NCBI GenBank assembly: GCA_964017235.1
Contig: OZ024940.1
Location: forward strand, 28,762,573-28,826,572
Reading direction: 5' to 3'
Length of the DNA: 64,000 bases
From: Sabellastarte sp. h YS-2021
Lineage: Eukaryota > Annelida > Polychaeta > Sabellida > Sabellidae
Shown here: one piece after another, positions 7,769-41,040 of the stretch
Position numbering within the stretch: position 1 is the stretch's first letter
Layout of the letters: every line of letters starts with the position of its first letter
Notes under the pieces: model-generated
What the model was told of the DNA's origin: nothing
Database searches by the model: none
What the model saw: only the letters and a program-made list of their open reading frames with translations
Position numbers and translations under genes: made by a program

Positions 7769-7888
7769 TCAATGGTGGAAGAGTCTGAGAGCTGTGTGCA
7801 CCATAGTAACTCCATGTTCGTCACACGCTGCTATCACCCCCGCGTCATTGGTTGATCCCGCTGGCGAGGCAATGTAACGCACACCACT
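7769..7888 (-). CDS. ATIC: ATIC exon 16 (terminal, with stop)
   Basis: Encodes [20 protein letters not shown], then [19 protein letters not shown] and TGA. The C-terminal LRLFHH matches human ATIC. Degenerate copies of its middle portion lie just upstream in intron 15 (7905-7950). Confidence 0.96.

Positions 7889-41040: not shown

What the first reader, a model, noticed from the sequence alone, without database searches (positions are those of the whole stretch)
7769..41040. Minisatellites in ATIC repeatedly arise from splice junctions
In at least three introns of this one gene a clean minisatellite begins exactly at an exon border and its unit includes that border: exon 11 acceptor (40 bp), exon 8 donor (31 bp), exon 4 donor (21 bp). 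Weaker cases sit at exon 5 (acceptor), exon 9 (donor) and exon 16. Chance placement of unrelated satellites would not put exon bases and GT/AG signals inside every unit. The result is dozens of decoy splice sites in cis. Either junctions are a recurrent seed for tandem duplication in this genome, or the arrays affect splicing of a housekeeping gene.
Basis: seen in the sequence. Interest (0 to 1): 0.85.

Follow-up and report, generated by a model that had tools for sequence, protein, structure and literature searches.

The report
Splice-border minisatellites ("mirages") in ATIC
In this animal's ATIC gene, short pieces straddling the exon-intron border have been copied over and over into the neighbouring intron; it is a clear, multiple case of a phenomenon already known from lancelets as "mirages", and it recurs in other genes of the same genome.

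Summary
The core observation holds. ATIC lies on the minus strand: 16 exons, 590 aa, intact. Of its 30 splice borders, four carry intron arrays whose units contain exon bases: exon 11 acceptor (40 bp), exon 8 donor (31 bp), exon 4 donor (18-21 bp), exon 9 donor (degenerate). A fifth, exon 15 acceptor, has one diverged copy. The exon 5 array repeats only intron bases; the exon 16 case is not supported. The copied exon parts encode mostly conserved residues, so copying ran from exon to intron. The three main arrays match only their own place in the 1.79-Gb genome. They hold 21 decoy sites scoring at least as high as the true site; 30 of 31 decoys tested give a premature stop. The kind is known: "mirages" in lancelets; CBS 31-bp VNTR and 844ins68 in man. 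Among 194 predicted borders of other genes similar arrays recur (dynein, kinesin, myosin), but border sequence is copied about as often as intron sequence (7 of 194; intron mean 7.9); array starts are enriched at borders at one of four thresholds. Best reading: ordinary local tandem duplication, tolerated at borders because an intact junction stays beside the exon. ATIC is in the upper tail. Effects on splicing are untested.

The parts
7769..41040 (-). ATIC gene, coding exons 1-16 (E1 41028-41040; E2 39671-39797; E3 38947-39023; E4 34054-34120; E5 32963-33051; E6 32510-32588; E7 30717-30789; E8 16736-16892; E9 15846-15971; E10 15163-15270; E11 13285-13460; E12 12453-12581; E13 11061-11227; E14 9810-9918; E15 9394-9549; E16 7769-7888)
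   Evidence: assembly, 590 aa, open; gapless to 1g8m; Pfam PF01808 matches to three exons
13439..13941 (-). E11 acceptor array: 40-bp units matching up to about 35 bases of the exon start, with a TACTGAC branch-like motif (recalled consensus) in most regular units and CAG in 7 of 9 decoy units; two degraded outer copies up to 13941
16339..16760 (-). E8 donor array: 31-bp units = exon-end bases (24 aligned) + GTATGTACACAC; 12 decoy units counted, of mixed types
33505..34059 (-). E4 donor array: 18-21-bp units of the type CTTCTACATCAG|GTGAG
15678..15870 (-). E9 donor array, degenerate; AAACACGTCAG repeated, plus a CCTGCAG|GTCACTGAA copy at 15687
9629..9650 (-). single diverged copy of the E15 start (exon bases 4-25, 18 of 22 identical) in the 260-bp intron 14
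33040..33227 (-). E5 acceptor: repeats of the intron 3' end (TGTATGACTGTGTACTTTCAG); exon bases not repeated, so not a full junction array
39071..39328 (-). 27-bp array in intron 2, 48 bp upstream of the weak E3 acceptor; no exon bases found in it
8965..9307 (-). 19/35-bp arrays in intron 15; no support for derivation from E15 or E16

Best explanation
The arrays are 'mirages': tandem duplications of a short segment spanning an exon-intron border, later expanded within the intron. Proposed steps: (1) a local duplication of a few tens of bases happens to span a border [shown: units hold exon plus intron bases]; (2) it is tolerated because one complete junction still lies directly against the exon, the first donor or the last acceptor [shown: the coding frame is intact; inferred: splicing uses that junction]; (3) the extra copies, now intronic, multiply and homogenise by slippage or unequal exchange, while the exon-side copy is held by selection [shown: intron units resemble each other more than the exon; mechanism inferred]. 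Borders need not be special seeds. Local duplication is common in this genome's introns, and borders are simply not exempt, whereas exon interiors show it less.
For: Exon bases in arrays at 4 of 30 ATIC borders and in a single copy at a fifth. The copied exon segments encode ATIC residues mostly conserved in chicken, e.g. [12 protein letters not shown] and FKHVSPAG, so the exon is the source. The three main arrays found at one place only. E8 columns 0.89 and E11 columns 0.96 conserved among intron units, while the ten regular E11 units match the exon at 26-31 of 40. Similar arrays in other genes: L101 (77 bp x 4.9, 21-23 of 24 exon bases in its first three copies), L059 (26 bp x 3.8, 16 of 18 in three copies), L031 (43 bp x 8.5), L040 (35 bp x 5.3). 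Border copy rate about equal to the intron rate in 194 sampled borders. Lancelet mirages are said not to disturb regular splicing, and CBS 844ins68 alleles to make normal mRNA (passages read).
Against: At threshold 18 of 24, array starts are 2.2 times over-represented at borders (16 v 7.2, P 0.001), which would favour a border-specific cause; thresholds 17, 19 and 20 do not show it. Since exons cannot host arrays, a neutral model with long arrays would predict somewhat fewer border copies than intron copies, and about equal rates were seen. ATIC has more than the sample (5 of 30 v 6 of 194). There is no RNA evidence that the exon-side junction is used. The sample borders were predicted, not annotated.
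Confidence: 0.72

Rival explanations
1. Splice junctions are preferred seeds for tandem duplication in this genome, through something specific to junctions (for example stalled transcription, R-loops, or recurrent AG|GT microhomology).
For: ATIC: array starts at borders 11, 8, 5 and 3 of 30 against 2.4, 1.3, 1.2 and 1.0 for shifted borders at T 17-20; P below 0.01 for the first three, 0.07 for the last. Sample at T 18: 16 v 7.2. Exon-end 24-mers and 30-mers with own-intron copies at p<=0.02: 7 and 9 of 194 against 3.9 expected; exon-interior controls 5 and 4.
Against: Sample at T 17, 19 and 20: no significant excess, and arrays overlap borders less often than shifted points. Border copy rate no higher than intron rate. 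ATIC was chosen for the feature.
Confidence: 0.17
2. The arrays regulate ATIC: decoy sites compete with the true sites and divert part of the transcripts to decay, with dose set by copy number.
For: 9, 6 and 6 decoys at E4, E8 and E11 score at least as high as the true site, against 0.08, 0.03 and 0.30 expected; E9 has none. 30 of 31 decoys tested give a premature stop more than 50 nt upstream of the last junction. In the CBS 31-bp VNTR, the repeat is associated with reduced activity (title of Lievers 2001 in the reference list of PMC2630376).
Against: No RNA data. The passages read on lancelet mirages suggest that regular splicing is not disturbed. Decoy signals look neither purged nor specially kept in E11 and E4; in E8 the GT is kept in all 12 units, as are several other columns.
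Confidence: 0.08
3. The arrays are remnants of intron birth by tandem genomic duplication of AG|GT-containing exon sequence.
For: Most units of E11 and E4 contain AG|GT; this route to new introns is described (PMC4974935, seen in listings only; PMC3087553 passages).
Against: The four arrays fill only one end of introns of several hundred to several thousand bases. Intron positions in relatives were not tested.
Confidence: 0.03
4. Unrelated satellites that landed by chance, or assembly artefacts.
For: Tandem-like sequence covers about 25% of the first 700 bp of ATIC introns and 12% in the sample at T 18, so some overlap with borders is expected.
Against: Exon-base match beyond all 1624 control pieces in these arrays; no second place found in the genome for the three main ones; four arrays with different units in one intact gene.
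Confidence: 0.02

Closest known systems
[quoted passage not shown] PMC3087553 and PMC3902484 (passages read); Canestro 2002 cited there, not held
   Same: Tandem units spanning an exon-intron border, at donors and acceptors, many units with splice signals; published unit lengths 10-72 bp (Adh3), 60 and 108 bp (PGBD5), 150-160 bp (globins)
   Different: Here four in one housekeeping gene, in a 1.79-Gb genome whose phylum is not established; length instability and transcripts not examined
Human CBS 31-bp VNTR c.1444_1467+7(16_21), PMC2630376 (passages read)
   Same: A donor-border array: 24 exon + 7 intron bases per unit by its name, 16-21 copies; the same architecture as the E8 and E4 arrays
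   Different: One border, human, known to vary between people
Human CBS 844ins68, PMC2630376 (passages read)
   Same: Duplicated intron 7/exon 8 junction; the machinery favours the distal copy, so the upstream part is removed and normal mRNA results. I read it as an acceptor-side case like E11 (a cited title speaks of 3' splice sites; the passage itself says donor sites)
   Different: Two copies, not an array
Internal tandem repeats at exon-intron boundaries of human genes in segmental duplications, PMC2812944 (abstract and passages read)
   Same: Minisatellites of about 30 bp, some at borders
   Different: There they can create alternative or novel introns, with transcript support

Membership tests
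Mirage (border-spanning minisatellite) | Tandem copies next to an exon-intron border | tested here: met
Mirage (border-spanning minisatellite) | Unit contains both exon and intron bases of that border | tested here: met
   met for E11, E8, E4, E9; E15 acceptor is a single copy; not met for the E5, E3, E15-donor and E16 repeats
Mirage (border-spanning minisatellite) | Local origin, not a dispersed satellite | tested here: met
   one candidate place each for stretches of the three main arrays (the tool skips very common words); E9 array not searched
Mirage (border-spanning minisatellite) | Normal splicing despite the copies | not testable with these tools
   only the open, gapless coding sequence is shown
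Mirage (border-spanning minisatellite) | Length instability between haplotypes or cells | not testable with these tools
   one assembly, no reads
Mirage (border-spanning minisatellite) | Occurs in a cephalochordate | tested here: inconclusive
   no GFP-family match (GFP abundance in lancelets is recalled; the tool warns that no match does not prove absence); mollusc haemocyanin also without match
Intron gain by tandem genomic duplication | Both ends of the intron come from one duplicated AG|GT segment | tested here: not met
   for the four arrays, exon-derived repeats lie at one end only of the intron; the opposite borders (E5A, E9A, E10A, E10D) show no exon copy

The most novel reading that the evidence does not exclude
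Exon-intron borders are true preferred birthplaces of minisatellites in a large animal genome (possibly outside cephalochordates), so that a few per cent of all splice sites carry self-derived decoy arrays, and in ATIC their copy number sets the share of transcripts lost to decay.
Probability: 0.12. Interest if true: 0.75.

Novelty: new member of a known kind. Interest (0 to 1): 0.45.

Why it matters
It gives a natural set of genes in which strong decoy splice sites, as good as or better than the real one, stand next to the true site in an intact housekeeping gene. That is a ready test of how the splicing machinery picks among near-identical sites. It also gives a sampled estimate, for this genome, of how often borders are duplicated (6-7 of 194 by the strict copy test, of which four are clear arrays), and suggests that borders are merely not protected rather than targeted. 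If the animal is not a lancelet, mirages are a wider animal phenomenon than the papers read here report.

Tried and rejected
Dispersed satellite family: rejected, each of the three main arrays gives only its own place. E5, E3, E13, E15-donor and E16 as junction arrays: exon bases not supported. L023 (42 bp x 31.4, myosin) looked like a mirage, but its predicted donor lies behind an in-frame stop and only 10-11 of 18 exon bases match, so I do not count it as shown. L046 is also flagged for a stop and shows no listed copy. L087 and L093 are single distant copies, not arrays. An apparent enrichment of array starts at one threshold did not hold at the others. Organism: GFP and haemocyanin searches gave nothing; a paper search with six short oligomers from a SINE-like repeat hit only an unrelated bacterial paper; phylum left open. 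Rfam on the window: 0 matches at gathering thresholds. The first paper search for minisatellite + splice donor found one unrelated review. Searches for border minisatellites with mollusc or bivalve terms (5 of 5 and 10 of 34 papers listed) showed no such report beyond lancelet and human genes; that is one open-licence library only, and I judged most entries by title.

Rows dropped before counts: of 202 possible borders in 101 loci, 194 were kept; 8 fell under the score limit of 3.5. Borders flagged with stops that passed the limit (L007 and L046 acceptors, L022 and L023 donors) were not removed. Of the copies listed, one search tested 12 of 19 (E4), 12 of 14 (E8) and the 7 regular CAG units (E11).

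Full report
Setting. The window is a stretch of contig C21 of a 1.79-Gb genome in 647 contigs. ATIC lies on the minus strand. Joining 16 exons gives 590 codons and one terminal stop. The product aligns without gaps to chicken ATIC over residues 3-590, so the junctions fit to the codon.

What is at the borders. Listing the copies against their border shows for the E8 donor ...AAGCTGCCACTGAAAG|gtatgtacacac followed by units such as AAACTGTCACTCAAAG|gtatgtacacat. For the E4 donor it shows ...GATTCTCCTACATCAG|gtgagg followed by units such as CTTCTTCTACATCAG|gtgaag. For the E11 acceptor...tgtgtccag|GTGCCGACCGTATGTCCAGTTTTG is preceded by units such as ...ttgtgtccag|GTACTGACCGTATGTCCACTTTGA. The E9 donor shows AAACACGTCAG repeats and a CCTGCAG|gtcactgaa copy.

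Are exon bases really in the units? I aligned only exon bases at the border to the adjoining intron, for all 30 borders, with 1624 other coding pieces of the same gene (1670 and 1717 for two borders near the start) and 1000 shuffles as controls. Five borders beat all other pieces: E11 acceptor, E8 donor, E15 acceptor, E4 donor, E9 donor (shuffles at or above: 0, 0, 0, 0, 2). E14 donor is borderline (30 of 1624; 10 of 1000 shuffles). A first run on nine borders gave the same verdict for those nine. E15 acceptor is a single copy, 18 of 22 bases, about 100 bp upstream; the other four are arrays. At E11 two intron units begin with the same 18 bases as the exon, and the similarity runs over about 35 exon bases. 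The copied exon segments encode mostly conserved ATIC residues, so the exon is the older sequence.

Local birth. Stretches of the 40-bp, 31-bp and 21-bp arrays searched in the whole genome gave one candidate place each, their own. The tool skips very common words, so this is strong but not absolute.

Growth. Among intron units, columns are on average 0.96 (E11, 9 units), 0.89 (E8, 12 units) and 0.80 (E4, 21 units) conserved. The ten regular E11 units match the exon at 26-31 of 40, the two outer ones at 19 and 22. E8 has unit types in irregular order, and TRF also reports periods of 119 and 150 bp, as expected if several units are copied at once. The exon-side copy stands apart; the globin mirage paper likewise reports boundary units excluded from homogenisation (PMC3087553).

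Decoys. With weight matrices from 98 donors and 96 acceptors of other genes, the arrays hold 9 (E4), 6 (E8), 0 (E9) and 6 (E11) sites at least as good as the true one (within 0.05), against 0.08, 0.03, 0.03 and 0.30 expected from the rest of the ATIC introns. I tested 31 decoys (12 E4, 12 E8, 7 E11): 30 lead to an early stop and 1 (E8 +156) would add 52 residues in frame. At E4 the donor itself reads AG|GTGA in the exon frame, so reading past it stops at once (all 12 stop at codon 95). The decoys show no clear loss: GT is intact in 12 of 12 E8 units; the A of AG is kept in 7 of 9 E11 units.

Is it a property of the genome? I took exon-centred loci from the myosin (30), kinesin (30) and class I tRNA synthetase (21) families, and 20 more from CCT and dynein genes: 101 loci, 194 predicted borders kept of 202. 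These are the best-scoring matches or my picks from the tables, not a random draw, and border prediction rests on splice consensus near the profile match, so some are wrong. Clear arrays with border bases exist: L101 dynein acceptor (77 bp x 4.9; 21, 21 and 23 of 24 exon bases in the first three copies), L059 kinesin donor (26 bp x 3.8; 16 of 18 in three copies), L031 myosin acceptor (43 bp x 8.5; chiefly intron bases, 11-13 of 18 exon bases) and L040 kinesin donor (copies from +35 on, 10-14 of 18 exon bases; the part TRF reports as 35 bp x 5.3 starts some 200 bp into the intron).

Are borders special? Three tests. (a) First sample, 36-mers against 40 foreign flanks: centred on the border 19 of 155 have a better own copy, about 3.8 expected by chance; windows centred 36-252 bp inside introns give 9-17 of 155. 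(b) All 194, 24-mers, margin of 2 over all foreign flanks: exon end 6, border-spanning 7, 14 intron windows 6-11 (mean 7.9), exon windows further in 4, 1, 3, 6 towards the border. (c) Array starts at the border against shifted borders: 17 v 16.1, 16 v 7.2, 6 v 3.9, 3 v 3.4 at T 17-20; P 0.45, 0.001, 0.19, 0.66. Overlap of any array with the border is below that with shifted points at all four (24 v 37.7, 19 v 21.4, 9 v 14.8, 4 v 11.7). An earlier tally at T 18 looked enriched; it does not hold across thresholds. Pure exon ends have own-intron copies somewhat more often than chance (7 or 9 of 194 against 3.9 at p<=0.02). Conclusion: borders are copied at about the intron rate; a twofold preference is not excluded. 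ATIC exceeds the sample (5 of 30 v 6 of 194, P 0.008), but it was chosen for this.

What is known. [quoted passage not shown] the papers say or suggest that they do not disturb regular splicing (passages only; the 2002 source is not held). The human CBS gene has a 31-bp repeat with, by its name, 24 exon and 7 intron bases and, at another exon, a duplicated intron 7/exon 8 junction (passages). Human border repeats that do alter introns are in PMC2812944 (abstract and passages). So the kind is known. What is added here is four arrays in one gene and a sampled rate with controls. Whether this animal is a lancelet is open: no GFP match argues against it only weakly.

Verdict. A real and well-formed case of a known phenomenon; the strong claim of border-specific seeding is not supported by the sample; the claim on splicing is untested.

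Noticed in passing
G000:C14:20123497-20142816 (table): A two-exon myosin-head cassette (profile 127-173 and 167-200) recurs at a spacing of about 2.35 kb: nine places for the first exon and six listed for the second. Possibly a tandem exon array or alternative-exon cluster; sequence not fetched.
   Followed up: no
window 9581-9650 (minus), intron 14: The 260-bp intron holds a diverged copy of the E15 start (9629-9650) followed, towards E15, by a weak match to the E14 end (16 of 24 bases, borderline). That order is what a tandem duplication of the whole small intron with both exon edges would leave.
   Followed up: partly
window 22628-27956 (minus), intron 7: Long ORFs; the one at 22628-24247 matches tyrosine recombinase profiles weakly (PF00589 24.4 bits, below its cut-off of 27.1; PF02899 22.8, just above 22.3), as in DIRS-like elements (recalled). 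Two neighbouring ORFs scanned gave no Pfam match.
   Followed up: partly
window 34792-36653 (minus), intron 3: ORF 34792-36036 carries a hAT transposase dimerisation domain (PF05699, 69.6 bits); the adjoining ORF 36009-36653 has no Pfam match.
   Followed up: partly
window 49440-58428 (plus): RING/B-box ORF (49440-50504) followed by ORFs ending in NHL repeats (51199-52020, 57625-58428), apparently TRIM-NHL-like genes.
   Followed up: partly
window 39023 (E3 acceptor): Very weak acceptor (ctgtgtttggag|GGAGG, score 2.1 where the sample's 5th percentile is 4.7), 48 bp from a 27-bp array; the frame fits chicken ATIC.
   Followed up: partly
window near 4440, 8160, 10300, 12950, 15570, 32350 (minus): Repeated SINE-like element with a tRNA-like head (GTGGCAGAGTGGTAACACTC...GTTCGATCCC) and an AAATAAATAAA tail, seen by eye in several introns and downstream of the gene.
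   Followed up: no
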